A stretch of DNA of 64,000 bases, taken from positions 62,001-126,000 of the forward strand of contig NZ_JAGQCE010000001.1 of assembly GCF_024345995.1 (NCBI RefSeq), read 5' to 3'. The position numbers and the translations under genes are program-made. How positions within the stretch are numbered: the stretch's first letter is position 1; each line of letters opens with the position of its first letter. Below are positions 379 through 56,697 of this stretch, piece after piece. Under the pieces are notes generated by a model. It ran no database searches and had not been told where the DNA came from. It saw only the letters and a list, made by a program, of their open reading frames with translations. Source of the DNA: Synechococcus sp. Cruz-7E5. Lineage in GTDB: Bacteria; Cyanobacteriota; Cyanobacteriia; PCC-6307; Cyanobiaceae.

Positions 379-389
379 AACAGCCCCGA

Positions 390-1802: not shown

Positions 1803-1872
1803 GGGGAAAATCTCCTTGTAGGTCGGGTGGGAAAGATGAGAGTGCTGCGCTCCATCAGGGGCGCGTCAGACC

Positions 1873-2184: not shown

Positions 2185-5306
<3,122 letters not shown>

Positions 5307-5551: not shown

Positions 5552-6514
<963 letters not shown>

Positions 6515-6540
6515 TCCTCTGAAAAGCGCCTGAGCCTGGT

Positions 6541-7428
6541 TCAGATCTCGGCGGCGGCCCGCTCCACCAGGCGGCGGGCCACAGCCTGGACCCCAGTGTG
6601 GGCATATGTATCGGTGAAGGCATCCAGGAAGACCGCCAGCTGATCCATACGTCCCTGCCAGGGACCCAAGGTGGTTTCCAGAGCCTGGACGGCTCGCTGA
6701 CCACTGAGCCCCAGTTGGGAGACGAGTCCGTCAGCCCAGCCGACCCATTGCTCAACGCCCCGTCGCAGGAAGCCCAGGTGGGCCTGATCGTTGCGCCCGG
6801 GCATCAAGCCTGCCATCCGCCGGTAGGCGGGGAGCTGACGCAACTGGATTGCACTCGCTTGCCCGAGCAGTCCATCAAGCCGCTGCAGCGCCTGATCTCC
6901 CAGCGGCAGCAGACCGTCGAAGGTGACAAGGGCCGCCATGCGCAGTCGTGCCTCCGATCCGTAGTCGGCCAGGGCGGCAGCAAAGTCAGCGAAACTGTCG
7001 CCGGGAAGGCCATTCACCTGGGTGAAGGCCAGCAGTTCGGCCGACACCTTCAGTCCCAGGTCCACCGCCTGCAGTGTGTCCCCCGGTGGCGTGAGGTCCG
7101 CAATGCGTTTGAGCAGGGGCACGCCGGCGCTCACACCAGCAAGCACGCGTAAGCCAGCCGTGGCGTGCTGGGAGCGGTTCACAGCGTCGTAGACGCTCAG
7201 GGCCCGGCCATACCCTTCATGCCGCGCCCGGCTGAGTTGATCAGCCCGGGCTCGCACCTGGGCGATCAAGGCAGCATCGTTGCTGCCGATCACCGACTCG
7301 ATCAAGGCTTCAGCACTGGTGATGTTGCTCCAGCCACCAGGCACAAGCAGGCTCAGGCCCTGGAGCGAGAGCACAGTGAGACCCCGGCGCGGCAGGCGCT
7401 CCAGACGGGAGAGAACAGGGGTGCCCAT
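6541..7428 (-). CDS. Uncharacterised protein, third gene of the por operon
   Basis: A 295-residue, alanine- and leucine-rich, apparently mostly helical soluble protein starting MGTPVLSRLERLPRRGLTV. No catalytic motif or family signature was recognised. The start at 7428 leaves 4 bp to the stop of the upstream gene. A longer reading frame to 7533 would overlap that gene and is less likely. Tight spacing places it in one transcript with por and the 174-aa gene, so a role near pigment synthesis or thylakoid biogenesis is an inference from context only. Confidence 0.8.
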   Translation of the reverse strand: MGTPVLSRLERLPRRGLTVLSLQGLSLLVPGGWSNITSAEALIESVIGSNDAALIAQVRARADQLSRARHEGYGRALSVYDAVNRSQHATAGLRVLAGVSAGVPLLKRIADLTPPGDTLQAVDLGLKVSAELLAFTQVNGLPGDSFADFAAALADYGSEARLRMAALVTFDGLLPLGDQALQRLDGLLGQASAIQLRQLPAYRRMAGLMPGRNDQAHLGFLRRGVEQWVGWADGLVSQLGLSGQRAVQALETTLGPWQGRMDQLAVFLDAFTDTYAHTGVQAVARRLVERAAAEI

Positions 7429-7432
7429 GACC

Positions 7433-7957
7433 TCAGGAGCGGGGGAGGGGTGAGGATCCGAGGGCGGCAAGTCCCTGGAGATCAAAGTTTTCAAGGACAC
7501 CGTGGCGATGGGCGGCATCAAGGGAGCTTCCATGCTCGATCACCTTCACCTGAAAGCGATCTGCCACCAACAGCGCACTTGCATGAGGCCCCTGTTCGAC
7601 CAACGGCCACCCCTTCAGTCTTTCCTCTGCTTGCTCGAACTTTGCTCGGGCTTCTGGTGCGGTGATCGTGTCGGAGATGGCCAGAAGGGCAATCACCTGG
7701 TCGCCCTGTTTAAGACGCGCTTCGCTGAACCCCCGCTTTTCCTGCGACATCGTCACCCGCAATTCGGGATTCGATCGGGGAAAGAGCCGGTTGAAGCGGG
7801 AGCCGTTCACCACCTGCTGCAACGGCACATCGGCGACCGTTCCACCGGGCAACCAGTCGGCGAAAGGCAGAAGCAGCACCCCGCCCACCAGCAAGCCAGC
7901 GGCCAGCAGCAGAGCGACAACCCAGCGAAGCGGACGGGGCATCACCATCACATTCAC
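7433..7957 (-). CDS. Uncharacterised single-pass membrane protein, second gene of the por operon
   Basis: A 174-residue protein with an N-terminal hydrophobic anchor (about residues 10-32, VVALLLAAGLLVGGVLLL) followed by a polar extracytoplasmic or lumenal domain of about 140 residues. No known domain was identified by eye. The start may be any of the Met residues at 1, 4 or 6. Its start lies one base from the por stop and its stop is 4 bp from the next gene, so the three genes almost certainly form an operon. It may anchor a membrane complex, but that is inference. Confidence 0.82.
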   Translation of the reverse strand: MNVMVMPRPLRWVVALLLAAGLLVGGVLLLPFADWLPGGTVADVPLQQVVNGSRFNRLFPRSNPELRVTMSQEKRGFSEARLKQGDQVIALLAISDTITAPEARAKFEQAEERLKGWPLVEQGPHASALLVADRFQVKVIEHGSSLDAAHRHGVLENFDLQGLAALGSSPLPRS

Positions 7958-7958
7958 C

Positions 7959-9344
<1,386 letters not shown>

Positions 9345-9842
9345 TCAGGGCTGAACCTGGGCCGGCAGTGGCTGGGTGCTGATCAAGGGTCTGCCTGATG
9401 GAGCCATGCCAGGCCTGGCTTCGGCTGGTTCATTCCAGACAACCCGCAGTCGGTTGGGAGCGATCCACTGATCCTGTTCGCGGATCAACTGTTGCTCACC
9501 AGTGGTGACGAAGAGTTGATCGAAACGCTTCTGAGCCTTCTGTAATTTGGCTTTCTCGATCTGAAGGATTGCACTCAGTTCATCGTGCTGGTTTAACCGC
9601 TGCTGGTAGGCAGCAGCTAAATGGACCAGGCTGAGGCCCGCCAAGAGAGTCACACCCAGCTTGACGCTGAGGCCAATGACGCTGCAAAGCAATTCCTGCC
9701 GATCGGTCGATCCCTGATGAATTGCAACCACAGTCGCTGCACTGACGGGTTGTGCGGCGGCGGGCCGGGATGCTGGCCGTCGCCCGGATGCCCTCTGACG
9801 CCTCGGGGTGGATACGGGCCTGAGCTGCTGCGCGGCGGACAA
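9345..9842 (-). CDS. Hypothetical membrane protein with coiled coil
   Basis: About 165 residues: a basic, Ala/Pro/Arg-rich N-terminal segment, one hydrophobic helix (LSVKLGVTLLAGLSLVHLAA), a heptad-like helix (ELSAILQIEKAKLQKAQKRF), and a short C-terminal domain with LIREQDQWIAPNRLRVVW. The topology resembles small septal proteins such as FtsL, but no homology can be claimed. The frame stays open to 10049, overlapping psaM. The TTG at 9842 (MSAAQQLRP) is preferred because it avoids psaM and the codon composition changes near there. The start is uncertain. Confidence 0.65.
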   Translation of the reverse strand: MSAAQQLRPVSTPRRQRASGRRPASRPAAAQPVSAATVVAIHQGSTDRQELLCSVIGLSVKLGVTLLAGLSLVHLAAAYQQRLNQHDELSAILQIEKAKLQKAQKRFDQLFVTTGEQQLIREQDQWIAPNRLRVVWNEPAEARPGMAPSGRPLISTQPLPAQVQP

Positions 9843-9912
9843 GGGGGGGAAGGAGAAGATCTTGCCCGCTTCTAGCAGTTCAGGCCAGACCTGCCAAGGG
9901 CGAGCCCTCGAT

Positions 9913-10017
9913 TCAGGCCCGGTAAAGGCTGACGCAGAGACGAATCGCCAGAACGCCGGCGTGTGCGGCGACCACCAGAGCGACCAGAACCTCTGCCTGG
10001 GTGAGTGTTGTGACCAT
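9913..10017 (-). CDS. psaM: Photosystem I subunit XII (PsaM)
   Basis: A 34-residue, single-helix protein, MVTTLTQAEVLVALVVAAHA then GVLAIRLCVSLYRA. The pattern TQ-x-x-x-ALVVA-x-x-x-x-LA-x-RL-x-x-x-LY matches PsaM, the small membrane subunit at the trimer interface of photosystem I. It is easily missed because of its length and because a longer frame overlaps it. It lies just upstream of the 9345-9842 gene on the same strand and divergent from the CRR6 gene. Confidence 0.85.
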   Translation of the reverse strand: MVTTLTQAEVLVALVVAAHAGVLAIRLCVSLYRA

Positions 10018-10106
10018 GGACGACGAAGGGGTACAGGTGTCGCCACCATTGTTCGGCTCCCTTCTGCCCGGTGTCACAGGATGGCATCGTGCTGTCACAG
10101 CTCTTG

Positions 10107-10598
10107 ATGGCCCAACCTCCTTCCAGCCTTTCTGTTGCCGCCGAGAGCGTCCGCTCTCTTGATCTTTCGCCGCTGCAACCCTGGGGCGCGTGTGCTCCAG
10201 CTGATCTACTCGCCTGTGCTGGAGCTTTGGGCCTCGACTTTGACTGGCCCCTTCAGCCAGGCGATCCACGCGAGCTCTCAGAACTGCCTGAACTGCGCCT
10301 GTGGAGCCTGAGGGCCGATGCGCTTCACCCCTGGCTACCGCTTGTTCTCGACCGCAGCAGCGGCCAGCTTTGCCGCCATGTGGCCATGCTTCTGCCCCAT
10401 CGCTTCAGCCGCCATGAGGGGATCCGTTTTGCACCGGAGAGCCTCGAGCTCTGGATCACCCACCGTTTCTTCCTGCTGGATCACTGGAGCAATGAGCGTG
10501 GCCTGAATTGCCGTCAGGGGCTCGCTCAGATGGCTGCGGTGCTGGGTTTCGAGCTCGATCCCAGCTTCTGGGAGTCGATCAGCCGATCAGCAGGCTGA
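10107..10598 (+). CDS. CRR6-family NDH-1 assembly protein
   Basis: A 163-residue protein of the CRR6/DUF1817 family, known from plants and cyanobacteria to assist maturation of the NdhI subunit of the photosynthetic NDH-1 complex. The family core reads DWPLQPGDPRELSELPE, then LRLWSLRADALHPWLP and the RFSRHEGIRFAPESLE block. The ATG at 10107 (MAQPPSS) is preferred over 10071. Its last 20 bases overlap the converging permease gene. Confidence 0.85.
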   Translation: MAQPPSSLSVAAESVRSLDLSPLQPWGACAPADLLACAGALGLDFDWPLQPGDPRELSELPELRLWSLRADALHPWLPLVLDRSSGQLCRHVAMLLPHRFSRHEGIRFAPESLELWITHRFFLLDHWSNERGLNCRQGLAQMAAVLGFELDPSFWESISRSAG

Positions 10599-11340
10599 AG
10601 GCCCGCCGGCCGCTGTCGAGAGCCAACAGGCCAGTGAGCCCTCGCAGCAGCTGAACCAGGAGGGTCTCTGGAACTCTCTCCAGTCGTGCCGCAGACCAAC
10701 TTGCCGCCACTGATGCCGATCCCCCCAGGATGAAGGCGATGGCCCCCTGGGCCTTCGCACCGATCAGGAAGGTCACCGACGCCGCCGACGCGGAGCACAA
10801 CACGGCCAGGGTGCTCAGGCGGATGGATTCACGCACGGGCAATCGCAGGCACCTGATCATGAGGGGAACCATCAGCAGGCCGCCACCCACCCCCAGCAGC
10901 CCTCCGGCAAGGCCGGCGACGCTGCCCACCAGTGCCAGAGCCGGCAGCGGCGTCGGTCCTGGAGATGGTTCCGTCTCATAGTCCTGGCGAGGGGAGATCG
11001 TCAGAGTCAGGGTCAAGTACATCAGGGTCTGCAGGCCCAGCAGTTGCCAGCCGCTGAGCAGTCCCCCCAGTCGGCTGAACAGCAGCCCGCTCAGGGCGGC
11101 ACTCAGGCCGATGGTCAGGCCCATCGCAGGCATCACCCGACCCTGGCGCAGATGCACCCAGGTTCCCCCCAGGGTGGTGGGGACGATCGCCAGGGTGCTG
11201 GTGGCCAGGGCCTGATGGGGCGCTAGGCCCACCATCAGCAGCATCGGTGAGAACACCAGACCGCCACCGATGCCCAGCAGACCCGAGAGCAGCCCAGCCA
11301 CCACACCGAGGGGCACCAGCACCAGCAGATCGCTGTGCAT
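10579..11340 (-). CDS. TauE/SafE-family (DUF81) membrane permease
   Basis: A 253-residue polytopic inner-membrane protein with two repeated halves, each opening with a glycine-rich helix: VAGLLSGLLGIGGGLVFSPML near the N-terminus and VAGLAGGLLGVGGGLLMVPLM in the middle. This internal duplication is the hallmark of TauE/SafE exporters of sulfite, sulfonates or other organic anions. The substrate cannot be read from sequence. The start at 11340 (MHSDLLVLV) is chosen over the upstream in-frame codon at 11406, which would run into the divergent gene. Confidence 0.88.
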   Translation of the reverse strand: MHSDLLVLVPLGVVAGLLSGLLGIGGGLVFSPMLLMVGLAPHQALATSTLAIVPTTLGGTWVHLRQGRVMPAMGLTIGLSAALSGLLFSRLGGLLSGWQLLGLQTLMYLTLTLTISPRQDYETEPSPGPTPLPALALVGSVAGLAGGLLGVGGGLLMVPLMIRCLRLPVRESIRLSTLAVLCSASAASVTFLIGAKAQGAIAFILGGSASVAASWSAARLERVPETLLVQLLRGLTGLLALDSGRRAFSLLIG

Positions 11341-11348
11341 GATCGGGA

Positions 11349-12128
11349 TTGATTGGCGGCCGTACGGTGGCACCAGCATCCTCTGCTGATACCCCTTTCC
11401 CGTCAAGCTGGCGCTGGATCCCCCCCCTCTGCCTGCGCGGCGACTGGCAGATGGCCATCGACGACTGGTTGCTGGATCAGCTGCCGCTCAAGCCAGGGCA
11501 GGGAGTCGTGCGCCTCTACACCTGGAGCACGCCGACTCTGTCGCTCGGCCACCACCAGAAGGCCATCGACCCTGCCTGGAGAACCGCGACACGACAAGGC
11601 CGCCTAGCCCTGGTGCGCCGGCCCAGCGGCGGTGGAGCCGTGCTCCATGCCGGCTGCCTCACCTATGCCCTGCTCTGGCCCAATCCTCCCCGCCAGCGCA
11701 AGCAGGCTTACGGCCTGGTAGCCGTCTGGCTGGCGCAGGCTTTGGCTCGCCTGGGGCTGGACCTCAGCCCAGGCCAGGACGAGACCACGGCGCCGGCCTC
11801 CAACTGTTTCGCCAGCAGCACCGCCGCTGATCTGGTGGGCATCGATCGCCAGAAGCGGGTGGGCAGTGCCCAGCTCTGGCGCAAGCGCCAGTTGCTGCAG
11901 CACGGCAGCGTGCTGGTCGACCCTCCGGTTGCCCTGTGGCAGGAGTTGTTCGGGTCGCCCCTTGAGGCTCCAGCCACAGCTCCAGGGCTGTCTGAGGCTG
12001 CTTTGGAGCGTGAGCTGCGGCTTGCGGCGATCAGGAATCTGGGGGGAGGACCGCTGCTGGTTGAGCCACTGAGGCCAGCGGAATGGGCGGCAGTCGATCG
12101 CCGCCGCCACAGGTTTCGCCTGTCCTGA
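11349..12128 (+). CDS. Lipoate-protein ligase A-like protein
   Basis: A 259-residue member of the biotin/lipoate ligase fold. RRPSGGGAVLH is the nucleotide/lipoyl-binding loop, and QKRVGSAQ carries the lysine equivalent to the LplA catalytic lysine. Such proteins transfer lipoyl or octanoyl groups to dehydrogenase subunits, or act as related ligases. The start appears to be TTG at 11349, 8 bp from the divergent permease start. A GTG 18 bases downstream is an alternative. Confidence 0.8.
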   Translation: MIGGRTVAPASSADTPFPSSWRWIPPLCLRGDWQMAIDDWLLDQLPLKPGQGVVRLYTWSTPTLSLGHHQKAIDPAWRTATRQGRLALVRRPSGGGAVLHAGCLTYALLWPNPPRQRKQAYGLVAVWLAQALARLGLDLSPGQDETTAPASNCFASSTAADLVGIDRQKRVGSAQLWRKRQLLQHGSVLVDPPVALWQELFGSPLEAPATAPGLSEAALERELRLAAIRNLGGGPLLVEPLRPAEWAAVDRRRHRFRLS

Positions 12129-12149
12129 GGAACGGCCAGAGCATGAGGG

Positions 12150-13376
12150 TCAACCATCGCCGCTCTCGGCGATCCCCCGCGCCACCTGGGCCAGGGCAAG
12201 CCCAAGTGGGTAGGTGCCCTGGCGCCTGGCGGCCTCCAGCAATGGCGGCGGCAGCCGCAGCCCCAGGCGGGCCAGCACCACTTCAGAGAGTTCCGGACGC
12301 TCCAGGGTGCCGGATGGCAGGCCAGCCGAACCCAGCACCAGCAGTCGATCGACACCTGGCTCGTCCAGCTGCAGGGCGGCCTGCCAGAGCGGCGCATCGT
12401 GCTGGATGCTCGGGAGGGTGTTGAGGGGTTGAATGTGGTCCAGCACCCGCTCCTGATCCCAACGCTGAACAGGCAGATTCTGCAGGGGGTCATCGCCGAT
12501 CACGCCTTTCCAGCGCCCCCGCTCACAGACGAGAACCCAGTCGGGATTGCCATCGCTGTCATCCCGCCGCATCCGAGAAAGCTCGCGTAGCGGCGCATCG
12601 CCCTCCAGGACCCGAAACCGGCGGCGGGAGGCCTCACTGACCTTGAGATCCTTCAGGGCCTTCTGCAGGGCCAGCAGCTGGATCTGGTTTCTGGAAGCGC
12701 CCAGCCCGAACCACCCGAGCATGATCAGCCAGAAGGCCCCAAGCCCGCCACCCCGCAGCAGCAGGAGCGTGCCCATGCCCACTGCCATCAGCGAGAGGAA
12801 GCGGCCCATGGCGGCAGCCACCTGCACGCCGCGCCGTTGACTGCCAGTCCACTGCCAGACCAGCGCCTTGACGATCAATCCTCCGTCCAGTGGCAAGCCG
12901 GGGAGCAGGTTGAACAGGGCCAGTACCAGGTTGAGGGTGCCGAGCTGGCTGACCATTTCACCCAGCAACGGTGAGACATGGGCCACGGCATGGCTGCCAC
13001 CGAGGAAAAGACCGGCCAGCAGCAGGCTGACCAGGGGGCCGGCTGCAGCCACCTGCAGGGCTGCCATCGCTGTGCTGCATTCCTTCTCGACACTGGCCAC
13101 CCCGCCTAGCAGGAACAGGGTGATGCTGCGCACTTTCACCCCATGGGCGATCGCCACCAGGGAGTGGCCCAGCTCATGCAGCAGCACAGAAACAAACAAC
13201 AGCAGCGCTGTTCCCAGTGCCAGCAGCCAGAGGCTGGCACTGGAGGCCTGTCCCGCCAGCTGAATGCCGTATTGCTGCTCAAAGCCCAGGGTGGCTAGCA
13301 GCAGGATCACGAACCAACTGGGGTGGACGCGCAGCGGGATGCCGCCGATCTTGAGGAGCTGCCAACCTTCACCCAC
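12150..13376 (-). CDS. Site-2 protease family zinc metalloprotease with CBS-like tail
   Basis: A 408-residue intramembrane M50 protease. The zinc site HELGH lies near residue 67 in a membrane segment and the second motif, LPGLPLDGG, around residues 158-166 supplies the aspartate. Several hydrophobic helices fill residues 17-230. The soluble C-terminal part (about 240-380) looks like a CBS pair. Such S2P-like proteases in cyanobacteria cleave membrane-anchored regulators. It faces the lipoate-ligase-like gene tail to tail. Confidence 0.9.
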   Translation of the reverse strand: MGEGWQLLKIGGIPLRVHPSWFVILLLATLGFEQQYGIQLAGQASSASLWLLALGTALLLFVSVLLHELGHSLVAIAHGVKVRSITLFLLGGVASVEKECSTAMAALQVAAAGPLVSLLLAGLFLGGSHAVAHVSPLLGEMVSQLGTLNLVLALFNLLPGLPLDGGLIVKALVWQWTGSQRRGVQVAAAMGRFLSLMAVGMGTLLLLRGGGLGAFWLIMLGWFGLGASRNQIQLLALQKALKDLKVSEASRRRFRVLEGDAPLRELSRMRRDDSDGNPDWVLVCERGRWKGVIGDDPLQNLPVQRWDQERVLDHIQPLNTLPSIQHDAPLWQAALQLDEPGVDRLLVLGSAGLPSGTLERPELSEVVLARLGLRLPPPLLEAARRQGTYPLGLALAQVARGIAESGDG

Positions 13377-13455
13377 CTGGTTCCGTCCTGCCGATGCCCA
13401 GGCAGATCCTGGGCGGTGTTGATCCGATCCTAGAAAGAGTGCCTCCGACCTTCCT

Positions 13456-14118
13456 GTGCTGACTCCCCCCCTGTTGAAGATCTGCGGCCTGCGCCAACCG
13501 GCCCAGGCCCAGGCGGTGGCCGAGCTGGGGGTGGATGCCGTGGGGGTGATTGCGGTGCCCTCTTCCCCGCGCTGGCTGGCTCCGGATCAGCGACTGTTGC
13601 TGTTCCAGGCGATGGCCGCCGGCCGCCCAGACTGCCGAGGGGTGCTGGTGCTGGCGGATCCAGGTGACGAGCTGATCGTGCAGATGGATTCCGCCCATGG
13701 CCACCAGGTGCTGCAACTGCATGGGCAGGAGTCCCCCGCTCGCTGCCGGGAATTGGCCGCAAAAACTGGCTGCACGATCTGGAAAGCCCTGCGAGTTCGT
13801 AGGCCAGAGGATCTCGATCGGGTGGAGGAGTATCGAGACGCGGTGGAAGCGGTACTGCTGGACGCCTGGGTTCCGGATCAACTGGGAGGCAGCGGCCAGC
13901 AGATCCCTACTGCTTGGCTCAAGGGCTTCCAACCATGCCTGCCCTGGTGGTTGGCCGGTGGTGTGGGACCAGCCAACGCGGCTGATTTAATGGCAAATTT
14001 CAACCCCTGCGGACTCGATGTATCCAGTGCTGTCGAACGCTCTCCCGGCGAGAAAGATCTCGATCTGGTGCGCGCTTTGGTGCAGCTGGTGAAAGGCGAA
14101 GCCTCGGGGAAGAAATGA
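13456..14118 (+). CDS. trpF: Phosphoribosylanthranilate isomerase
   Basis: TrpF catalyses the third committed step of tryptophan synthesis, converting phosphoribosylanthranilate to the CdRP ribulotide. The catalytic cysteine motif KICGL is at the N-terminus, the LQLHGQE motif is mid-protein, and the phosphate-binding WLAGGVGPAN and GLDVSSAVE loops follow. At 220 aa it has the normal length of a monofunctional enzyme. The start is GTG at 13456. It ends 2 bp before the converging folE stop. Confidence 0.94.
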   Translation: MLTPPLLKICGLRQPAQAQAVAELGVDAVGVIAVPSSPRWLAPDQRLLLFQAMAAGRPDCRGVLVLADPGDELIVQMDSAHGHQVLQLHGQESPARCRELAAKTGCTIWKALRVRRPEDLDRVEEYRDAVEAVLLDAWVPDQLGGSGQQIPTAWLKGFQPCLPWWLAGGVGPANAADLMANFNPCGLDVSSAVERSPGEKDLDLVRALVQLVKGEASGKK

Positions 14119-14120
14119 AC

Positions 14121-14864
14121 TCAGGTGCTGAGCAACGCTTGCTGTTGCTTCACCAGTTCAAAGAATTCCTGTTTGAGACTGGGGTCGTGGCGGAAATCAC
14201 CCCGTACCACTGAATTGACCATGCTGGTCTGAGGTTCTTTGACCCCACGCCACTTCATGCAGTAGTGCTGGGCTTTGACCAGGATTGCCAAACCCTGGGG
14301 CTTGCACAGACGTTCGATTTCATCCGCGAGGATCATCACAGCTTCCTCCTGGATGTGTGGACGGGAAAAGACCCAATCCGCCACCCTGGTGAACTTGGAA
14401 AGGCCGATGACCCTATCGCCAGGCTTGATCCCGATCCAGCAGTTGCCCAGGATCGGCACCAGATGGTGGGAGCAGGCCGAGCGGACACTGATCGGCCCAA
14501 CAGTATAGATCTCGTCAAGATGTTTGACGTTGGGAAAGCTGGCGATCTTCGGTTGTTTGTGGTAACGACCCTTGAAGACCTCGTGGAGGTACATCCTGGC
14601 GACGCGCTCGGCAGTTTCCTCAGTGTTGTGATCGTTGTCGATGTCGATAACGAGGCTACGCAGCATCTCCCTGACCTTTCCGGCCACCTCGATCTCGAGC
14701 TGGTCGAGTTCGCCCTCGAGCAGATGATCAGAAATGTTGTCGTTGGCGAAGTAGGGGACGCCAGCCTGGTTCAGGCGCTCGCGAATGCGCGCGCTGATAG
14801 GTCCTGGTGCCACGTCGGGGGTGATCGAGTTGGAGCGAGTGGTGGAGGGGATGGTGGATGTCAT
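14121..14864 (-). CDS. folE: GTP cyclohydrolase I
   Basis: FolE opens the guanine ring of GTP to make dihydroneopterin triphosphate for folate and pterins (queuosine through QueD also starts from this product). The zinc and active-site motifs are intact: SACSHHLVPILGNCWIGI, the LSKFTR segment, and the C-terminal AQHYCMKWRGV with the zinc cysteine. A 25-residue Ser/Thr/Pro-rich N-terminus precedes the core. The gene follows the SDR by 7 bp and is probably co-transcribed with it. Confidence 0.96.
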   Translation of the reverse strand: MTSTIPSTTRSNSITPDVAPGPISARIRERLNQAGVPYFANDNISDHLLEGELDQLEIEVAGKVREMLRSLVIDIDNDHNTEETAERVARMYLHEVFKGRYHKQPKIASFPNVKHLDEIYTVGPISVRSACSHHLVPILGNCWIGIKPGDRVIGLSKFTRVADWVFSRPHIQEEAVMILADEIERLCKPQGLAILVKAQHYCMKWRGVKEPQTSMVNSVVRGDFRHDPSLKQEFFELVKQQQALLST

Positions 14865-46719: not shown

Positions 46720-47429
46720 GGCTCAAGCGGCTGGCGGGGCCGGGGGATCGGCACCACACGGCTGGCCTTGACCGCACTGCGCTGCCGGCCGCCGATGGTT
46801 TCGCTCACCATCACCCCCTCCAGCCGCAGCCACTCGTCAGGGCGGGGTCGGGGCTGATCGGGGGGCCAGCGCACCGGCAGCCCAACAGGCACGGCATCCA
46901 CCAGGCAGCAGCGCACCAGCAGGCGCGCCAGGTGGGGCTCCTCACCTTCGATGGGAAGGACGAAACCGCTGATGCGTACGGGATCACCTGCGTAGAGACG
47001 CGGATCCGGCTCGCTGCGCAGCAGGCGCACCCAGTCGGTGAGGCTGCGTTGGGCCGGAGGGAGCACAAAGCTGAGGCCCGGTTCCTCCAGCAGGTTGGCC
47101 TGGCGATTGGCGGCCAGATCGGCAAAGGAGGGACGGGGGGGCAGGGCCAGCACGGCCAGGGCAGCGCCGATGCTCAGCAGGGAGGTCCAGCGCCCGCTCG
47201 TGCGGCTGGCATCCCGCCAACGGCCGCTCAACTCCACAGCGGCCAGCAGCAGCAGCAGGAGTCCACTGGCCCAGACGAGCGGATGGAACACGGCCCGAAG
47301 GAGCAGATCGAGTCGTCCGCTCAGGTAGCTCTGCAGCAGCGCGACGCCCCACAGGCCCAGGGCCAGAGCCTTCAGGGGGCCCGGGGCCAGGCGCCGGAGC
47401 GTCAGGGAACGCTGGGGCCTGGATCTCAA
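46716..47429 (-). CDS. TIGR03943-family (DUF1980) membrane protein
   Basis: A 237-residue protein with two N-terminal hydrophobic segments (LKALALGLWGVALLQSYLSG and LVWASGLLLLLLAAVEL) and a soluble C-terminal OB-like domain. Within it, IRISGFV-type and LARLLVRCCLVDA blocks are typical of DUF1980. The TTG start at 47429 overlaps the permease stop as TTGA. Members are almost always paired with a UPF0718 permease, as here. The pair probably forms one transporter of unknown substrate. Confidence 0.82.
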   Translation of the reverse strand: MRSRPQRSLTLRRLAPGPLKALALGLWGVALLQSYLSGRLDLLLRAVFHPLVWASGLLLLLLAAVELSGRWRDASRTSGRWTSLLSIGAALAVLALPPRPSFADLAANRQANLLEEPGLSFVLPPAQRSLTDWVRLLRSEPDPRLYAGDPVRISGFVLPIEGEEPHLARLLVRCCLVDAVPVGLPVRWPPDQPRPRPDEWLRLEGVMVSETIGGRQRSAVKASRVVPIPRPRQPLEP

Positions 47430-48397
47430 AGCAGGATCAGGTTGACCCATTGGCCGATCAGCAACACCACAAGGGACGCCGCCCCCGCTGTGAGCAGGAT
47501 GGCGCGGGGCCGCAACAGGATGCTGAACAGCCCAACCAGCTTGAGATCCATCACCGGCCCCAGCAGCAGGAAGGCCAGCACAGCACCCGGGGTGACCTGG
47601 GCGGCAAATCCCAGGGCAAGAAAGGCATCCACGCTGGAGCACACCGACACCACCAGGCTGAGCAGCATCAGGCTCAGAATCGAAAGAGTGGGAGCACCGC
47701 CCACCGCGATCAGCCACTGGCGAGGCACCAGGGTCTGAACCAGGGCGGCGATGGCACAACCCATCACCAACAGCAGGGCCAGCTCCAGAAACTCGGCGCC
47801 GCCGTGGGAGAGCACCTGGCCGAGGGGGGGGCGACGGCTCGATCCCGCCACAACTGACGTGGCGCCGCCGGCCGGAGCACCGATCAGGCCACTGCGGCGC
47901 TCCAGCAGGGTCACCTCTGCCAAGGGTTGGCTCAGACGCCGTTCCTCCAGCAGAGCCGGCTGCAACAGCTGGCTGTCGGGAAGGAGCCGCAACAGTGTGG
48001 CCAGAGCCACGGCGATCAGCACGGCCCCCAGGGGCCGTGCTGCCAGCAGCCAGGGCTGATCAGGAAAGGCGGCCCAGGTGCTGGCCAGGACGATCGGATT
48101 GAGCACAGGAGCCGCGAACAGAAACCCGAGGGCGGTGGCGATCGGCGCCCCTTTCACCAGCAGATGACGGGCCATGGGCACGTTGCCGCACTCACAGGCG
48201 GGCAGGGCGAAGCCCAGTGCCGCCCCGCTCAGGGGGCCCAGCAGCGGGTGGGCAGGCAGGGCCCGCACCCACTTCCCCCCGGGGCTGATCCAGCGGGCCA
48301 GGCTGGAGAGAGCCACCCCGATCAGCAGAAAGGGCATCGCCTCCACCAGTAACGCCTGAAACAGAGCCCAGGTGGTGGCCAGCCGCTCCACACCCAT
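47426..48397 (-). CDS. UPF0718/YraQ-type permease (DUF318)
   Basis: A roughly 323-residue polytopic membrane protein with two halves of about four helices. The family motif ALPACECGNVPMARHLL in the first half carries a Cys-x-Cys pair, and VVSVCSSVDAFLALGF mirrors it in the second. A Ser/Gly/Arg-rich loop (residues about 165-210) separates the halves. The frame is open upstream to 48472, but that extension is derived from a queD fragment, so the start is placed at 48397 (MGVERLATTW). Substrate unknown. Confidence 0.87.
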   Translation of the reverse strand: MGVERLATTWALFQALLVEAMPFLLIGVALSSLARWISPGGKWVRALPAHPLLGPLSGAALGFALPACECGNVPMARHLLVKGAPIATALGFLFAAPVLNPIVLASTWAAFPDQPWLLAARPLGAVLIAVALATLLRLLPDSQLLQPALLEERRLSQPLAEVTLLERRSGLIGAPAGGATSVVAGSSRRPPLGQVLSHGGAEFLELALLLVMGCAIAALVQTLVPRQWLIAVGGAPTLSILSLMLLSLVVSVCSSVDAFLALGFAAQVTPGAVLAFLLLGPVMDLKLVGLFSILLRPRAILLTAGAASLVVLLIGQWVNLILL

Positions 48398-48530
48398 CAC
48401 GCGAAGGTCGAGGAATCTGTGATCAAGGAGCGAGCGCCACCGCTCCAGCAGCATGTCATCAGCATTCACCAAAAAGTTTGAACTGCCCGGCCTGGAACCA
48501 GCTGGTGAAGCTAAGGCTGCGGCTTACTCG
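48395..48530 (-). pseudogene. Decayed fragment of queD
   Basis: This stretch aligns at nucleotide level with the intact queD at 56188-56655: the part corresponding to NADDxLLExWRxL...LDLRVM (17 of 24 codons give the same residue) lies at 48395-48469, and a second block matching the segment before the active-site Cys follows at about 48493-48525. About 70 bases present in queD are missing between the blocks. No complete frame survives. It abuts, and may supply the start region of, the permease gene. Confidence 0.8.
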
Positions 48531-48590
48531 CACTCAAAGGGTCTGTGGCCCCACTCGAGAATGCAGAGATCAGTTGCATCAAGGCCCAGC

Positions 48591-49304
48591 TCAGCGGGAG
48601 GGCAGAGCCTTGAGGGCTTCGCCAGATCCCATCACAACAAGTAATTCGCCCTCTTTCAGGACATGGGACGCCGGTGGGTTCACAGTCAGCTGGTTCTCTG
48701 GACCGACAGCCAGGACGGTGACGTTGTGATTCTTGCGCAAATTCAGTTCACGCAGAGACTGATTGACAAAGGCCTTTGGCACACGAATTTCCTCGATGCT
48801 GTTGCGGTCATCGAGCCGTAGCCGTTCGAGCATGTTCGGACGAACGAGCTCCAGGCCAAGCCGGTGGCCCTGCATTTTTGATGGATAGACCACTCGATCA
48901 GCTCCGACGCGCTGGAGCATCTTCATGTGAAGATCACTGGTGGCACGGGAAATCACCTGCTTCACCTTCGTGCCATCGCTATGTTTCGCGATCAAAGTGG
49001 CGGTGATGCTCGCTTCGATGGGTTCGCTGATCGCCACAACAACAGTGTCAACCTCCAAGGCCCCTGCTTCACGTAGAGCCTCCTCATCCGTGCAGTCCAC
49101 AACCCTGGCTTCAATCGATGGGTCGATCAGGCGCATGGAATCGATGGCTCTCTGATTGGCATCGATCGCCAACACCGTTGCACCGTTATGAATGAGCTCG
49201 TCACAGACCGCTGATCCAAACCGGCCAATACCGATGACCGCAAAGGTTTCGAACGACGTCGATCCATCGGGGGCCCATTGCCACCACGCATTTTTTGATG
49301 TCAT
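48591..49304 (-). CDS. ktrA: Potassium uptake regulatory protein KtrA/TrkA-type
   Basis: A 237-residue RCK protein: RCK_N domain with FAVIGIGRFGSAVCDELIHN and the acidic DANQRAI nucleotide contact, then an RCK_C domain (about 150-230, LRLDDRNSIEEIRVPKAFV). It binds adenine nucleotides and gates the KtrB channel. The stop is followed by the queD remnant region, and the start lies 11 bp after ktrB, so both form one operon. Confidence 0.94.
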   Translation of the reverse strand: MTSKNAWWQWAPDGSTSFETFAVIGIGRFGSAVCDELIHNGATVLAIDANQRAIDSMRLIDPSIEARVVDCTDEEALREAGALEVDTVVVAISEPIEASITATLIAKHSDGTKVKQVISRATSDLHMKMLQRVGADRVVYPSKMQGHRLGLELVRPNMLERLRLDDRNSIEEIRVPKAFVNQSLRELNLRKNHNVTVLAVGPENQLTVNPPASHVLKEGELLVVMGSGEALKALPSR

Positions 49305-49315
49305 CGGTTCACAAT

Positions 49316-50722
49316 TCAGATGAAGACCTCTTCGCGGGGGTAGCCGACCCTGGACTGGGGTCTGCTGCCGTAGAGGGCTGAGAGCAACAGCATGATGCCC
49401 AGCCGACCCACGAACATCCCCACCATCAGCACCAACTGACCCCAGCGATTAAGGTTAGCGGTCACTCCCACATCCAGTCCGACGGTGCCGAAGGCCGACA
49501 TGCAGGTGAACAGCTTCTCAAGGAAGCTGTAGGCCTGGTGGGCAGTGGGTTCTCCTCCCGCCGTTGGTCCAAGTCCAAGCAGCAGAGTCATCAGGATCAC
49601 GAACAGGCCTGATGCCAGGGCCACGCCCACGGCCTTGAGAACGATGTCCCCGGGAATCTGGTGCCTGCGGATGATCACCTCCTTGCGGTCTTCGAGGGTG
49701 GAGCGGGTGGCACCCATCAGAACCGCGAAGGTGGTGGTCTTGATGCCACCGCCGGTACCGCCGGGGCTGGCACCGATGAACATCAGCACGATCATCAGCA
49801 GCAGGCCCGCATCGGAGAGCGTCTCGATCGAGAGAGGCACCGTGTTGAAGCCTGCCGTGCGAGTGGTGATCGATTGGAAAATGGTGACCTGCAGCTTGTC
49901 CCAGAGAGTGAGGGTATTGATGACTCCATCGGGAGCGAACTGTTCGGTGAACAGCAGTCCCAAGGCCCCGATCACGATCAGCAGCAAGGTGCTGCGCAAC
50001 ACCAGCCGAGTGTGCAGACTCAGTCGGCGGATCCGTTGGAGCCGGAAGCGCTTTTCCCAGAGGTCATTGGTGACGCGCCAGCCAATGCCGCCGGTGACGA
50101 TCAGACTACCGATGACACCATTGACGACTGGGTTACCTTTGTAGCCAACCAGGTTATCGCTCCAGAGGCCAAAGCCAGCGTTGTTGTAGGCACTGATGCA
50201 ATGAAACATCGCTGCCCAAAGCCTTTCGCCATGGTTGCTGATGTCGGTGAACCCGAAGATGTAGAGAATAAGTGTGCCGACCCCCATCACGCAGCCGGCG
50301 GTGATCAGAATCCGATGAAATGTGGGGCCGATGCCCCCGACGCCGAACTCATCTAGCGCCCGGCCCTTGTCGAGGCGTAGACGCAGGCCGGATCGACCTT
50401 GAACGAAACCCTGAAGAAAGGTGGTGATCGCCATCAGGCCGAGCCCGCCGGTGATGATCAGCCCGGCCAGCGTCACCTGCCCAAAGAATGTGAGGTCCTT
50501 GCCCACATCAATGATCGACAGACCCGTCACCGTGATCGCCGAGGTCACGGTGAACAAAGCCTGCCAGAGCCCAACATCATCGCTGGAGCAGAGCGGCGAA
50601 GCCAGCAGCAGGGTTCCAACAGCAATCACCAGCGCACCTGTGACCACAGTGAACTGGGGCACCGTGAGTCGGTGACGCCACAGCAAGAGGCGGGTCCAAA
50701 GGTGATCAGGAGATCTGGACAT
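49316..50722 (-). CDS. ktrB: Potassium transporter KtrB (TrkH family)
   Basis: A 468-residue Trk/Ktr channel-like subunit with four M-P-M repeats. The selectivity-filter segments read SAITVTGLSIID, ISAYNNAGFGLWSD, ITTRTAGFNTVPL and MSAFGTVGLDVGV, each with a conserved Gly. A Gly-rich gate loop (ASPGGTGGGIKTTTF) is intact. Uptake of K+ coupled to Na+ is the known role of cyanobacterial Ktr. The start at 50722 (MSRSPDHLW) is preferred to 50761. Confidence 0.94.
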   Translation of the reverse strand: MSRSPDHLWTRLLLWRHRLTVPQFTVVTGALVIAVGTLLLASPLCSSDDVGLWQALFTVTSAITVTGLSIIDVGKDLTFFGQVTLAGLIITGGLGLMAITTFLQGFVQGRSGLRLRLDKGRALDEFGVGGIGPTFHRILITAGCVMGVGTLILYIFGFTDISNHGERLWAAMFHCISAYNNAGFGLWSDNLVGYKGNPVVNGVIGSLIVTGGIGWRVTNDLWEKRFRLQRIRRLSLHTRLVLRSTLLLIVIGALGLLFTEQFAPDGVINTLTLWDKLQVTIFQSITTRTAGFNTVPLSIETLSDAGLLLMIVLMFIGASPGGTGGGIKTTTFAVLMGATRSTLEDRKEVIIRRHQIPGDIVLKAVGVALASGLFVILMTLLLGLGPTAGGEPTAHQAYSFLEKLFTCMSAFGTVGLDVGVTANLNRWGQLVLMVGMFVGRLGIMLLLSALYGSRPQSRVGYPREEVFI

Positions 50723-50867
50723 CACCGCGCCAGGGCCCTTGTCTGCCAACCGATCGCCCACTTCGAACAGTGATTGGGAGATTAGTGGAGAGGCTGGATC
50801 CTGCAGTTGGGTGGCTGGAATCTGGAGCCAGAAAGTAGCCTGACCACCCCAGAAGCTTTATTACGCC

Positions 50868-53630
50868 TTGATCAGCCCTGTCGCCCCTGCCTGGCACAGC
50901 CTCGAACCCCAGGCCTGCCTGAGAGAGCTTGATGCCAGCGCCGAGGGCCTGAGCACGGCCCAGAGCGCCGAACGACTGGCCCGACTGGGCCTCAACCGGC
51001 TGGAACTGGCGCCAGGCCGCAGCAACCTGCGCATCCTCTGGGACCAGCTCAGCAACGTGATGCTGATCATGCTGCTGGCCGTGGCGGCTGTGTCGGCCGC
51101 CATCGCCTTCCAGGCGCAGAAGTTCCCGAAGGATGCGATCGCCATCGTGCTGATCGTCGGGCTGAACGCCCTGCTGGGCTACATCCAGGAAAGCCGCGCC
51201 CAGAATGCTTTGCTGGCCCTGCGCCAGATGGCCCAGCCTCTGGTCACGGCGCGGCGTGACGGCCACTGGGAGCGGATTTCGAGCGAACAGTTGGTGCCCG
51301 GCGATCTGATCCGCCTGGAAGCGGGCGATCGGGTCCCCGCCGACGCCCGGCTTCTGGAAGTCGCCGAACTGGGCCTGCGCGAGGCGGCTCTCACTGGCGA
51401 GGCCGAAGCCGTCTTCAAGAAGGCCGATCTGGTTCTCGATGCCACCACCCCTGTGCTGGAACGGCAGAACTGCGTTTTCCAGGGCACCGAGGTGGTGCGG
51501 GGGCGGGGCACAGCCGTGGTGACATCCACAGGCATGGGCACTGAGCTGGGCCAGATCGCCGAGCTGATCAACACCGCCGGGGGCGAAACCACGCCTCTGC
51601 AGGAACGGCTCGATGGGCTGGCCAACGTGCTGGTGGTCTCGGCGCTGGTGCTGGTGGCGCTGGTGGTGCTGGGGGGCTGGCTGCTTGGTCAGCCGTTGCT
51701 GGGCCTGCTGGAGGTGGCGCTCAGCATGGCGGTGGCGATCGTGCCGGAGGGCCTGCCCGCGGTGATCACCGTGACCCTGGCGATCGGTACCCAGCGCATG
51801 GTGCAGCGCGCTGCTCTGATCCGCCGCCTGCCGGCGGTGGAGGCCCTCGGCTCGGTCACGGTGATCTGCACCGACAAGACCGGCACACTCACCTTGAACC
51901 GCCAGGTGGTTGAGGAGCTGCGCTGCGGCAATCAATCGATCGCCGTCAGCGGCCAGGGCTACGACCCCCATGGCTCCTTCTCCGCGGCCGAGCTCGCCGC
52001 CCCCGAGGGGGCGGCAGCGGGCATCACCCCTGGAGCCAGGGACCTGCTGCTGTCGGCCGGTGTGCTCTGCAGCGACGCCGAGCTCAAGAAGGCAGAGGAC
52101 GGCAGCTGGGATGTGCTGGGCGATCCCACCGAAGGAGCTCTGGTGGTGGCCGCCGGCAAGGCCAAGCTGGATGGCTTCGCCATGCGCAGCCGCTACGAGC
52201 GCACGGCGGAGATTCCCTTCAGCTCCGAGCGCCAGCTGATGGCTGTGTGGGTGCAGGACAGAGACGGCACGCTCCAGGCTCCGCTCGGGGAGGTGGCGGC
52301 CGGCTCCAGCACCCTGGCGATCGGCAAAGGTGCTCCCGAGGTGATCATTGGCAGCTGCGACCGCTGGATCTCAGGCTCGGGTGTGACCGCTCTCTCTGAT
52401 CCTCAGCGTCAATGGTGGTTGGAGCAGGCGCGCACTCTGGCCGCTTCCGGCCTACGGGTGCTTGCGTTCGCATGCGCGCCTCACCATCACAGCCCCGAGC
52501 TTGAGCTCGACCATCTGGTGCTGCTGGGGCTGATGGCCCAGCTCGATCCGGCCCGCCCGGAAGTGGCCCAGGCAGTGGCCCGCTGCCGGGAGGCGGGCAT
52601 CCGGCCGGTGATGATCACCGGCGACCATCCCCTCACCGCCCGCGCCATCGGCCAGGGCATTGGCCTGGTCGATGGAGATGCCGAGGTGGTGCTGGGCCGG
52701 GAGCTCGAACAGTTCGACGACATCCGGCTGCAGGAGACCGTCAGCCGCTGCAGCGTCTATGCCCGAGTGCCGCCCGAGCAGAAGCTGCGCATCGTCAAGG
52801 CACTGCAGGCCAATGGCCAGGTGGTGGCCATGACCGGTGATGGCGTCAACGACGCCCCGGCGCTGAAGCAGGCCCACATCGGCGTGGCGATGGGCATCAC
52901 CGGCACGGAGGTGAGCAAAGAAGCCTCCGACATGGTTCTGCTCGATGACAACTTCGCCACGATCGTCAACGCAGTCGAGGAAGGGCGGCTCGTTTACGCG
53001 AACATCCGCCGCTTCGTGAAGTACATCCTTGGCAGCAACGTGGGTGAGCTGATCACGATTGCCTCGGCCCCTCTGCTCGGCCTGGTGGGCTCTCCCCTCT
53101 CCCCCCTCCAGATCCTCTGGATGAACCTGGTGACCGACGGTGTTCCCGCCCTGGCGCTGGCACTGGAGCCTGGGGAGGAGGGTCTGATGCAACGGCCTCC
53201 GGCTGAACCTGGCGAGTCGATCTTCGCGCGCGGGATCGGCAGTTACATCCTGCGCATCGGTGTGGTGTTCGCTGCGATCACGATCGTGCTGATGGTCTAT
53301 GCCTTCAGGTCTGGGGCTCCTTGGCAGACGATGGTGTTCACCACGCTCTGTCTGGCCCAGATGGGCCATGCCCTTGCCGCTCGCAGCGATCTCCCCTTGG
53401 TGCAGGTGAATCCGTTCTCCAACCCCTGGCTGATCGGAGCCGTCGTACTCACCTCTGCCCTGCAGATGGCCCTACTCTACGTGCCTGTCCTATCGAACTT
53501 CTTCGAGACGACGCCACTGAGCCTTCAGGATCTGGCCATCTGCATAGGGTTCAGCTTCCTGTTCTTCCTCTATCTGGAGCTGGAGAAGATCTGGCGGCTG
53601 TGGCGCCGCCGCGCCCATGCCGATGCCTGA
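50868..53630 (+). CDS. P2A-type cation-transporting ATPase (Ca2+/Mn2+-like)
   Basis: A 920-residue P-type ATPase with N-terminal cation ATPase domain, actuator [10 protein letters not shown]4 motif [15 protein letters not shown], phosphorylation site [16 protein letters not shown] nucleotide site, [15 protein letters not shown] hinge and M6 [17 protein letters not shown]4 PEGLP with M5 NVGELITI and M6 NLVTDG resembles the SERCA/PMR1 group, so calcium or manganese export is likely. The start appears to be TTG at 50868. Overlaps dedA by 14 bp. Confidence 0.93.
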
Positions 53631-54315
53631 GCTGCTGCTCGGCTCCCTTGTCCCGGCGGGAAGGTTGCAGCAGTGGGCCGAAGCGTTTCTCACGCTGATC
53701 GGTGACACGGTCGAGACCAATCCCGCCCAGGGCTATCTGCTGATCGGCCTGGCGCTGCTCCTGGAGAACGTGATCCCGCCGATTCCGTCAGAGCTGGTGA
53801 TGCCCCTGAGCGGCTTTCTGATTCAGCAGGGCAAGCTCCAGTTCATTCCCGTGGTGGTCGCCGCCTTGATCGGCACCGTGCTCGGGGCCTGGTTCTGGTA
53901 CGGGATCGGACGCCTGGTGAATGAGCAACGGCTGGAGCATCTGATCGGTCGCCATGGCCGTTTGATCGGCCTCAAGGCTGCTGATCTGGCTCTTAGCCGG
54001 CGCTGGTTTGCCCGCCATGGAGCGGCCGTGGTGTTCTGGGGTCGACTGGTTCCTGGTATCAGGCCATTCGTTTCCATACCTGCCGGTATTGAACTGATGC
54101 CTCAACGGTCGTTTCTGTTCTGGACTAGTGCCGGAAGCCTGCTCTGGATCCTGGCACTCGTTAATGCTGGCCTCCTGCTGGGGGACAACTACCGCCAGAT
54201 CCTCGACTGGATTGCGCCCTTGACCAGCCTATTGAGCCGCCTTGTGCTGATGCTCATCGCTTTGGCAACGGTCTGGCTCGGGGTCCGTGCTCTTCAGCGA
54301 AGCTCCAGACGCTGA
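53617..54315 (+). CDS. DedA family membrane protein
   Basis: A 232-residue DedA/SNARE-associated-like protein with about five hydrophobic segments. The family block LENVIPPIPSELVMPLSGFL near residue 50 and FWGRLVPGIRPFVSIPAGI near 140 are clear. DedA proteins flip undecaprenyl phosphate or phospholipids. It is translationally coupled to the P-type ATPase by a 14-bp overlap. Confidence 0.93.
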   Translation: MPMPELLLGSLVPAGRLQQWAEAFLTLIGDTVETNPAQGYLLIGLALLLENVIPPIPSELVMPLSGFLIQQGKLQFIPVVVAALIGTVLGAWFWYGIGRLVNEQRLEHLIGRHGRLIGLKAADLALSRRWFARHGAAVVFWGRLVPGIRPFVSIPAGIELMPQRSFLFWTSAGSLLWILALVNAGLLLGDNYRQILDWIAPLTSLLSRLVLMLIALATVWLGVRALQRSSRR

Positions 54316-54782: not shown

Positions 54783-56096
54783 TCACTTAACGACAGGAGG
54801 CGTCACAAGGATCTTGTCAACGCGCTTGCCATCCATATCCATCACCTCGAAGCGATATCCTTGCCAATTGAAATTGTCGGATGCCTTGGGGATACGCTCC
54901 AGGGCATGGATCACGAATCCAGCCATGGTGTGGTACTGCCGCTGTTCATCTGAGCCGAGAAGTTTGCTGCCGATCCGATCATCGAAGTCATTGATGTCGA
55001 GGCTTCCGTCCACCAGCCAACTGCCATCATCGCGGGTAACGAAGGAGGGCCCCTCTTCGTCTTCCAGCGCGGGCAGGTCCCCGACGATGCCCTCCATCAG
55101 ATCATTGAGCGTCACGAGACCCTCAACCCCACCGAACTCATCGGTGACCAGGGCGATGTGTATGCCGGTGCGCTTGAACTGCTCCAACACCGTGAGGCAC
55201 CGGATCGATTCCGCCACATAGAGCGGCGGCTGGCAAAGCGCTTCCAGATCGATGGGGTCATTGCCCAGGTGGGCGTTGAGCAGGCTGCGCACTCGAACGA
55301 TACCAATGCAGTCGTCCAGACTGCCTCGGCCTACGGGGAAACGGGAGTGGTTCGACTCCTTCACCTCCGTGAGATTCTCCTCCAGGGATGACTCCAGATC
55401 CAGCCAACGGATCTCGGTGCGCGGCGTCATCATCGTCTTGATTGTGCGATCCCCCAGCCGCAACACCCGTTGCACCATGTCGTGCTCACTTTCCTCGAAG
55501 ACACCGGAATCGGCTCCCTGGCGGATCAGGGCCTTGATTTCCTCCTCGGTGATGTCGGGTTCAGCGGAGGGGTCCACGTTCAGGAGCCTCAGCACAGCAT
55601 CGGTGGAGATGCCGAGCAGGTGCACCGCCGGAGCACTCATTTTGGAGAGCGTGCGCATGGCGGGTGCAATGCGGCAGGCGATCCGCTCCGGATTGGCCAG
55701 GGCAATGCGCTTGGGCACCAGCTCGCCGATCACAAGGGAGAGGTAGGTGATCAGGGCCACCACCAGAGTCACAGTCAATCCTTCGCTATATGGCTGCAGC
55801 GCCTCGATCCCATCGAAGATGGGTCTGAGCTGCTGCGCCACCGTGGCCCCGGCAACGGCACCACTGAGGATGCCGATAAGGGTGATGCCGATCTGCACCG
55901 TCGAGAGGAAATCGTTCGGCGATTCCGCCAGGCGAAGGGCCGCTCGAGCAGGTCGGCTCCCTTTTTCGGCCAGCTGCTGCAGCCGCAGCTTCCGGGCTGA
56001 AACGACGGCGATTTCAGAGCCTGAGAAGATCCCGTTGGCGATGATCAGCAACAGGATGAAGAGGATCTCGAACGCCAAGCAGGGATGAAGACCCAA
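54783..56096 (-). CDS. CNNM/CorC-like (hemolysin family) transmembrane protein with CBS pair
   Basis: A 437-residue protein: DUF21/CNNM membrane domain (residues 1-200, ANGIFSGSEIAVVSARKLRL then LVIGELVPKRIALANPE), a CBS pair (about 210-335, MTPRTEIRWLDLESSLEE), and a CorC-HlyC domain (C-terminal 85 residues with WLVDGSLDINDFDDRIG). Such proteins are linked to Mg2+ or Na+ export. The N-terminal MGLHPCLAFEILFILLLI starts directly in the first helix. Confidence 0.92.
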   Translation of the reverse strand: MGLHPCLAFEILFILLLIIANGIFSGSEIAVVSARKLRLQQLAEKGSRPARAALRLAESPNDFLSTVQIGITLIGILSGAVAGATVAQQLRPIFDGIEALQPYSEGLTVTLVVALITYLSLVIGELVPKRIALANPERIACRIAPAMRTLSKMSAPAVHLLGISTDAVLRLLNVDPSAEPDITEEEIKALIRQGADSGVFEESEHDMVQRVLRLGDRTIKTMMTPRTEIRWLDLESSLEENLTEVKESNHSRFPVGRGSLDDCIGIVRVRSLLNAHLGNDPIDLEALCQPPLYVAESIRCLTVLEQFKRTGIHIALVTDEFGGVEGLVTLNDLMEGIVGDLPALEDEEGPSFVTRDDGSWLVDGSLDINDFDDRIGSKLLGSDEQRQYHTMAGFVIHALERIPKASDNFNWQGYRFEVMDMDGKRVDKILVTPPVVK

Positions 56097-56187
56097 TCGG
56101 GGTCATCAATCTACCGGGTGGATCAGGTCATGTCCTGGCTGTTGTGGGTTGTAGCCCAGGTGTGGCCAGCTAACAGCTCCACATCCA

Positions 56188-56655
56188 TCATGGCCTGTCC
56201 AGGAGGAACCACTCGGGGGATGCCTCATAGCAGGCGGCGTTGCGCTCATTTTCGCGTGCCTCCACCTTCCAGCAGCAGCTGCGGCCGTCGTCGCGGGCGC
56301 GCAGGAGCTCATTGGCCCAGCCCCAGACCAGCTCAGCGCTGCTCTCCATCCCCACGTTCTCCATCACGCGCAGATCGAGGGCTCCTTGATCATGCAGCGT
56401 GCGCCACTGCTCCAGCAGCGGGTCATCGGCATTCACCAGAAAAGTGTGATCGAACTGCCCGGCCAGTTGGGCCTCCAGCTCCTTTAGGCCTGAGAAGTCG
56501 ACCACAAAGCCGTTGGCATCCAGCTGGCGGGCGCGGAACCAGCAGGTGAAGCTGCGGCTGTAGCCGTGCACGAAGCGGCAGTGGCCCTGGTGCCGCCACT
56601 GGCGGTGGCAGCAGGGGTAACCGCTGAACTGTTTCGAGCAGGTGAACAGGTGCAT
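56188..56655 (-). CDS. queD: 6-carboxytetrahydropterin synthase QueD (PTPS family)
   Basis: A 155-residue PTPS-fold enzyme that converts dihydroneopterin triphosphate to carboxytetrahydropterin for queuosine. The Cys/His motif [13 protein letters not shown] has active-site Cys and metal His, [15 protein letters not shown] and [11 protein letters not shown] follow, and the [13 protein letters not shown] block carries the catalytic Glu. The start at 56655 ([12 protein letters not shown]) is likely. A decayed copy of the 3-prime half lies at 48395-48530. Divergent from hisIE. Confidence 0.9.
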
Positions 56656-56697
56656 GGCCGGGATGGGAGAGGATCTCATCAGCCGGACTCCCCTTCC

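What the first reader, a model, noticed from the sequence alone, without database searches (positions are those of the whole stretch)
48395..48530. Decayed queD piece in front of the permease gene, intact copy 8 kb away
Bases 48395-48530 match queD at 56188-56655 in two blocks with about 70 bp lost between them. The first block encodes NADDxLLExWRxL...LDLRVM with 17 of 24 residues identical, and remains in frame with the permease, lengthening its ORF. So either queD was once duplicated or a recombination joined queD upstream of the permease, and the present permease start may derive from queD codons.
Basis: seen in the sequence. Interest (0 to 1): 0.6.

Follow-up and report, generated by a model that had tools for sequence, protein, structure and literature searches.

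The report
queD remnant beside an inserted block
In this Synechococcus relative, an 8-kb block of ion-transport genes has split an ancient two-gene operon and duplicated its first gene, and the reported fragment is the decaying second copy of that gene: a clear case of ordinary genome remodelling.

Summary
In detail: 48397-48551 (- strand) is a decayed copy of the QueD/PTPS-family gene at 56188-56679 (82-83% identity; E = 1.5e-21 against the whole genome). The interpretation needs turning round. queD was not brought to the permease. In five of nine same-genus genomes, and in many related picocyanobacterial loci, one intact queD sits directly in front of the permease; in the same-genus genomes the permease GTG start overlaps the queD stop (GTGA). 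In this genome and three congeners a ~7.6-kb block (trkA, trkH, P-type ATPase, dedA, CNNM/CorC) lies between them, with queD sequence at both ends. The outer copy is intact and is followed by a ~39-bp stub of the permease 5' end; the inner copy is decayed. So the block arrived with a direct duplication of queD plus the first permease codons. Congener G005 shows an intermediate: its inner queD is still 400 bp but has lost its metal-binding region through a 9-bp-repeat deletion. Here a deletion at an 8-bp repeat (CGTGATGG) rejoined queD exactly at the native permease start. Block identities contradict the chromosomal backbone, so the block has moved horizontally. This is a tidy example of known processes, modest in interest.

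The parts
48397..48551 (-). Decayed inner queD copy (remnant): blocks 48394-48475 and 48483-48519 plus a weakly matching 5' part to about 48551
   Evidence: Direct repeat 83% and 81%; E=1.5e-21 in own genome; weak extension to about 48551 at 70% identity, E about 1e-6; same remnant in G001 and G002
48394..48401 (-). CGTGATGG junction: 8-bp sequence found both inside queD and at the queD stop/permease start of relatives; deletion endpoint containing the native permease start GTG (48400-48398) and next codon ATG (48397-48395)
   Evidence: Read from aligned junctions of G000-G008
47426..48400 (-). ArsP_1-family permease, native reading frame start at GTG 48400
   Evidence: PF03773 E=3e-54; orthologues in same-genus genomes begin at this codon, overlapping the queD stop
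48591..49304 (-). Inserted block: TrkA-type potassium-channel regulatory protein
   Evidence: PF02254/PF02080; absent from this locus in G003, G004, G006, G007, G008
49316..50761 (-). Inserted block: TrkH/TrkG-type transporter (start codon uncertain)
   Evidence: ORF; plasmid matches annotated TrkH/TrkG; gene order
50868..53630 (+). Inserted block: P-type cation-transporting ATPase (named from the sequence)
   Evidence: ORF; distribution
53617..54315 (+). Inserted block: DedA-family membrane protein (named from the sequence)
   Evidence: ORF; gene order
54783..56096 (-). Inserted block: CNNM/CorC-type transporter
   Evidence: PF01595, PF03471, PF00571; close orthologue (>=93%) in the genus only in carriers G001, G002, G005
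56152..56190 (-). Stub of a permease 5' end directly after the outer queD (overlapping its stop), marking the outer edge of the inserted block
   Evidence: Local alignment to the permease start in G000, G001, G005 scores above all of ~2000 random 55-mers, in G002 equals the best 0.05%
56188..56679 (-). Intact outer queD (PTPS/QueD family), still next to hisIE as in relatives
   Evidence: PF01242 E=2.3e-23; 88-94% identical copies in all 8 congeners

Best explanation
The ancestral locus was hisIE divergent from queD-permease-DUF1980, with queD and the permease translationally overlapping (GTGA). A block of about 7.6 kb of ion-transport genes (trkA, trkH, P-type ATPase, dedA, CNNM) entered between them by a recombination that left queD, from about 10 bp before its start to about 12 codons into the permease, on both sides of the block. 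The outer copy kept the hisIE-side promoter region and stays intact. The inner copy lost that promoter region, is redundant and decays through deletions between short direct repeats. In this genome one such deletion put an internal queD codon run directly before the unchanged native start of the permease, so the ORF looks longer. The permease now lies 190 bp downstream of trkA on the same strand and is probably transcribed from the trkHA side (inferred). Shown: ancestral order, duplication, both junctions, the intermediate in G005, horizontal signal of the block. Inferred: the exact recombination route and the transcription change.
For: Single queD abutting the permease in G003, G004, G006, G007, G008 and in another genus (G031); in 25 of 69 named picocyanobacterial loci queD lies within 165 bp of the permease, L173 (=G005, block-bearing, inner copy) included. 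Same block between queD and permease in G001 (split over two contigs), G002, G005. Permease stub after the outer queD in all four carriers. G005 inner copy: 400 bp, in-frame deletion between two TTCACCTGC repeats removing the metal-binding segment, private changes 1 synonymous: 8 nonsynonymous against 26: 10 summed over eight intact copies. G000/G001/G002 share the same more decayed remnant. Backbone identity G000-G001 about 94-96% in most genes but block 82-94%; G000-G005 backbone 83-90% but block 88-93%, with conflicting trees. Same block, 82-89% identical DNA, downstream of the permease operon in Synechococcus CS-1325 and Tobar12-5m-g (L178, L182), where the chromosomal genes are only 68-82% identical.
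Against: The inner trkA-to-queD spacer differs between G005 and the G000/G001/G002 group, so the right-hand junction is not proven to be one event. No integrase, transposase or terminal repeats of a mobile element were recognised at this insertion. G001 carries the block across contig breaks, so its pairing rests on synteny.
Confidence: 0.87

Rival explanations
1. Sub-route A, tandem duplication: an ancestor had the order queD-permease-DUF1980-h45-block (as in L178/L182). The whole stretch was duplicated in tandem, then the first permease-DUF1980-h45 and the second block were deleted, leaving queD-block-queD-permease.
For: L182 and L178 have the block right after h45 in the same orientation; the DNA before CNNM right after the h45 stop in L182 (TGAGATCTGATCCAGCCAGTAGATTGA) resembles that between the permease stub and CNNM in G005 and G000; a permease stub follows the outer queD.
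Against: Needs two large deletions; no genome with the full tandem array found; queD in carriers is of the local genus type (about 90% to congeners, 78% to L182), so the L182 arrangement is at most a donor of the block.
Confidence: 0.35
2. Sub-route B, single-crossover (plasmid-like) integration: a circular DNA carrying the block plus queD and the first permease codons recombined with resident queD, giving the two flanking copies directly.
For: Explains both flanking queD copies and the permease stub in one step. In G001 a second copy of part of the block lies on contigs with a phage major head protein, tail fibre protein, integrase and an ArdC-type antirestriction protein.
Against: No such circle or plasmid was found; no viral contig encoded the block's TrkA or CNNM; the G001 second copy has neither CNNM nor queD next to it.
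Confidence: 0.3
3. The remnant is a working N-terminal extension or leader of the permease, kept by selection.
For: Frame open in G000, G001 and G002.
Against: Among the three genomes the 25 codons differ by about 4 replacement and 3 silent changes, giving no sign of constraint (read; too short for a strong test); G005 and the single-copy genomes use the GTG start without it; no promoter-like site in 48350-48650.
Confidence: 0.08
4. A loose queD fragment was translocated to the permease.
For: Sequence similarity alone.
Against: The permease side is the native queD position in relatives.
Confidence: 0.02

Closest known systems
Homology-facilitated illegitimate recombination / recombination at the border of homology (de Vries and Wackernagel 2002; Prudhomme et al. 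2002, seen here only as references in PMC3646047)
   Same: Foreign DNA captured beside a stretch of shared sequence, with one homologous anchor
   Different: Here the anchor gene ends up on both sides of the block; the route was not demonstrated
Campbell-type single-crossover integration of a circular DNA (textbook mechanism, own knowledge)
   Same: Predicts direct repeats of the homologous gene flanking the insert, one copy free to decay and precise loss possible by recombination between the repeats
   Different: No circular donor seen; duplicated unit runs slightly past queD into the permease
Zur/Znu zinc locus of marine Synechococcus WH8102 (PMC9337993)
   Same: znuB, znuC and a zur-type gene lie next to the permease operon here
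   Different: DUF1980 and queD gave no hits in a keyword search of that paper, and its single permease hit is ZnuB; regulation here not tested

Membership tests
Gene remnant (pseudogene) of a duplicated gene | Sequence homologous to an intact gene beyond chance | tested here: met
   E=1.5e-21 in own genome
Gene remnant (pseudogene) of a duplicated gene | Loss of parts needed for function | tested here: met
   5' part, ~74 bp in the middle and ~170 bp at the 3' end lost; G005 inner copy lacks the Cys/His-rich segment
Gene remnant (pseudogene) of a duplicated gene | Relaxed constraint | tested here: inconclusive
   G005 inner copy has 1 synonymous: 8 nonsynonymous private changes, as expected of decay; the remnant in this genome is too short to test strongly
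Horizontally transferred genomic block | Patchy presence in close relatives | tested here: met
   Present at this locus in 4 of 9 same-genus genomes
Horizontally transferred genomic block | Identity and trees conflict with chromosome | tested here: met
Horizontally transferred genomic block carried by a recognisable mobile element | Integrase or transposase at the site | tested here: not met
   None among the block's genes
QueD equivalog (TIGR03367) | Score above curated cut-off | tested here: not met
   40.1 bits against 89.25; PTPS superfamily PF01242 is met, so 'queD' is a family-level name
SO_0444-type Cu/Zn efflux permease (NF033936) | Score above curated cut-off | tested here: not met
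   71 bits against 300; general ArsP_1 PF03773 met

The most novel reading that the evidence does not exclude
The queD-flanked ion-transport block is a recurrent, reversible module: it enters and leaves the same locus in different lineages by recombination between the queD copies, and each entry switches the zinc-locus permease from the queD operon to the trkHA operon.
Probability: 0.18. Interest if true: 0.5.

Novelty: new member of a known kind. Interest (0 to 1): 0.3.

Why it matters
It gives a well-resolved series (before, intermediate, late) of how an inserted block splits a translationally overlapping operon, duplicates the anchor gene and leaves a remnant that gene finders may read as a longer permease. 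It also warns that a permease start annotated at TTG 48472 is likely wrong, and shows that the permease of a zinc-transport neighbourhood has been cut off from its ancestral upstream gene and that gene's hisIE-side promoter region.

Tried and rejected
Transposition of a loose queD fragment: rejected by synteny. Native N-terminal permease segment: rejected, in the other genomes that stretch is queD itself. Plasmid or viral origin of the block: no plasmid record matched closely and no viral contig encoded its TrkA or CNNM, though a second partial block copy in G001 lies beside prophage genes. AT-rich Zur-box-like palindromes upstream of the genes: a crude scan found none, which says little. A literature search for the same locus found nothing specific.

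Full report
OBSERVATION. The repeat is real and at the stated coordinates. Block 1 (48394-48475) matches 56361-56442 at 83% and block 2 (48483-48519) matches 56524-56560 at 81%. Searching the whole genome with 48350-48600 returns only itself and the queD locus, E = 1.5e-21. The gene at 56188-56679 is of the PTPS/QueD superfamily (PF01242), although it stays below the curated score of the QueD equivalog. The permease is ArsP_1 (PF03773).

ANCESTRAL ORDER. I compared eight same-genus genomes and further relatives. In G003, G004, G006, G007 and G008 one intact queD (88-92% identical) ends where the permease begins. The order there is sig - d2214 - mtlpr - h57 - hisIE - queD - permease - DUF1980 - h45 - znuB - zur - znuC (working labels for the window's genes), without any block (in G003 zur is interrupted). 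The other-genus genome G031 also has queD next to the permease. In 25 of 69 named picocyanobacterial loci queD lies within 165 bp upstream of the permease; one of these, L173, is the same strain as G005 and its adjacent copy is the decaying inner one. In 6 it lies farther upstream, and in 38 no queD was seen upstream, some of these on short contigs. The junction in the single-copy same-genus genomes reads ...GTGA..., the permease start GTG overlapping the queD stop.

DERIVED ORDER. In G000 (this window), G002, G005 and, over two contigs, G001, the genes trkA, trkH, a P-type ATPase, dedA and CNNM lie between queD and the permease. The outer queD keeps its hisIE neighbour. The inner queD keeps its permease neighbour. 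So the locus was split and queD doubled.

JUNCTIONS. Directly after the outer queD stop, all four carriers have a stub of the permease 5' end, about 39 bp (56152-56190 here). In three of the four its alignment score exceeds that of every one of about 2000 random 55-mers; in G002 it equals the top 0.05%. The duplicated unit thus ran from just before the queD start (visible in G005) through queD into the permease. At the inner side this genome, G001 and G002 share one remnant. Its 3' deletion joins at CGTGATGG, an 8-bp sequence found both inside queD and at the queD stop/permease start of relatives. The native GTG start (48400) and the next codon ATG (48397) therefore survive unchanged, and the 24 codons before them are a by-product.

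INTERMEDIATE. In G005 the inner copy is still about 400 bp. A deletion between two TTCACCTGC repeats has removed the Cys/His-rich segment in frame. It has 1 synonymous and 8 nonsynonymous private changes, against 26 and 10 summed over the eight intact copies: it is decaying. Its junction with the permease (GTGATTGCGGTGG) is of the G007 type, so it is the resident sequence.

HORIZONTAL MOVEMENT. Most backbone genes of this genome are 94-96% identical to G001/G002 and 83-90% to G005, but block genes are 82-94% to G001/G002 and 88-93% to G005 (short end pieces of trkH in G001 left aside). Gene trees conflict in the same way. The close CNNM orthologue (>=93%) occurs in the genus only in carriers. 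The block also sits immediately downstream of the permease operon in CS-1325 and Tobar12-5m-g at 82-89% DNA identity, where chromosomal genes are 68-82% identical. A second, partial copy in G001 lies on contigs with a phage head protein, tail fibre protein, integrase and ArdC-type protein, and viral contigs carry an 84% identical head protein. That pairing of contigs is inferred.

MECHANISM. Shown: duplication, split, decay, horizontal signal. Not shown: the route. A single-crossover integration explains both queD copies and the stub in one step. A tandem duplication of an L182-like order followed by deletions also fits, and the similar DNA before CNNM in L182 and the carriers favours it slightly. 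Consequence (inferred): the permease lies downstream of trkHA on the same strand, with no promoter- or terminator-like site in the gap, and is probably read from there.

VERDICT. Observation confirmed; duplication right; direction of events corrected; functional permease fusion unlikely. A well-resolved example of known processes.

Noticed in passing
L247 (G001:C41) 1-14315 and L248 (G001:C35) 10595-13382: Synechococcus J7-Johnson has a second partial copy of the block (trkH end, trkA; dedA, ATPase) beside a phage major head protein, tail fibre protein and integrase on one contig and an ArdC-type antirestriction gene on the other.
   Followed up: partly
L066 (G003) 273-2364: The zur gene is split by about 1.65 kb holding a 417-aa ORF that looks like an IS256-type transposase (judged by eye, not searched), so this strain probably lacks a working Zur from this gene.
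   Followed up: partly
window 56188-56679: The QueD-family protein has HGY where E. coli QueD has the zinc-binding HGH (E. coli sequence from memory); the Tyr codon is kept in the intact picocyanobacterial copies aligned, and the protein scores below the QueD cut-off. Its substrate may differ.
   Followed up: no
L178 13090-18666, L182 13033-20807: The same ion-transport block sits directly after h45 in two strains with a more distant backbone, i.e. the zinc-permease locus has received it on either side.
   Followed up: yes
L223 4347-4787: In Synechococcus sp. CCY 0621 the queD and permease tblastn matches overlap by 27 bp, unlike other strains; not examined.
   Followed up: no
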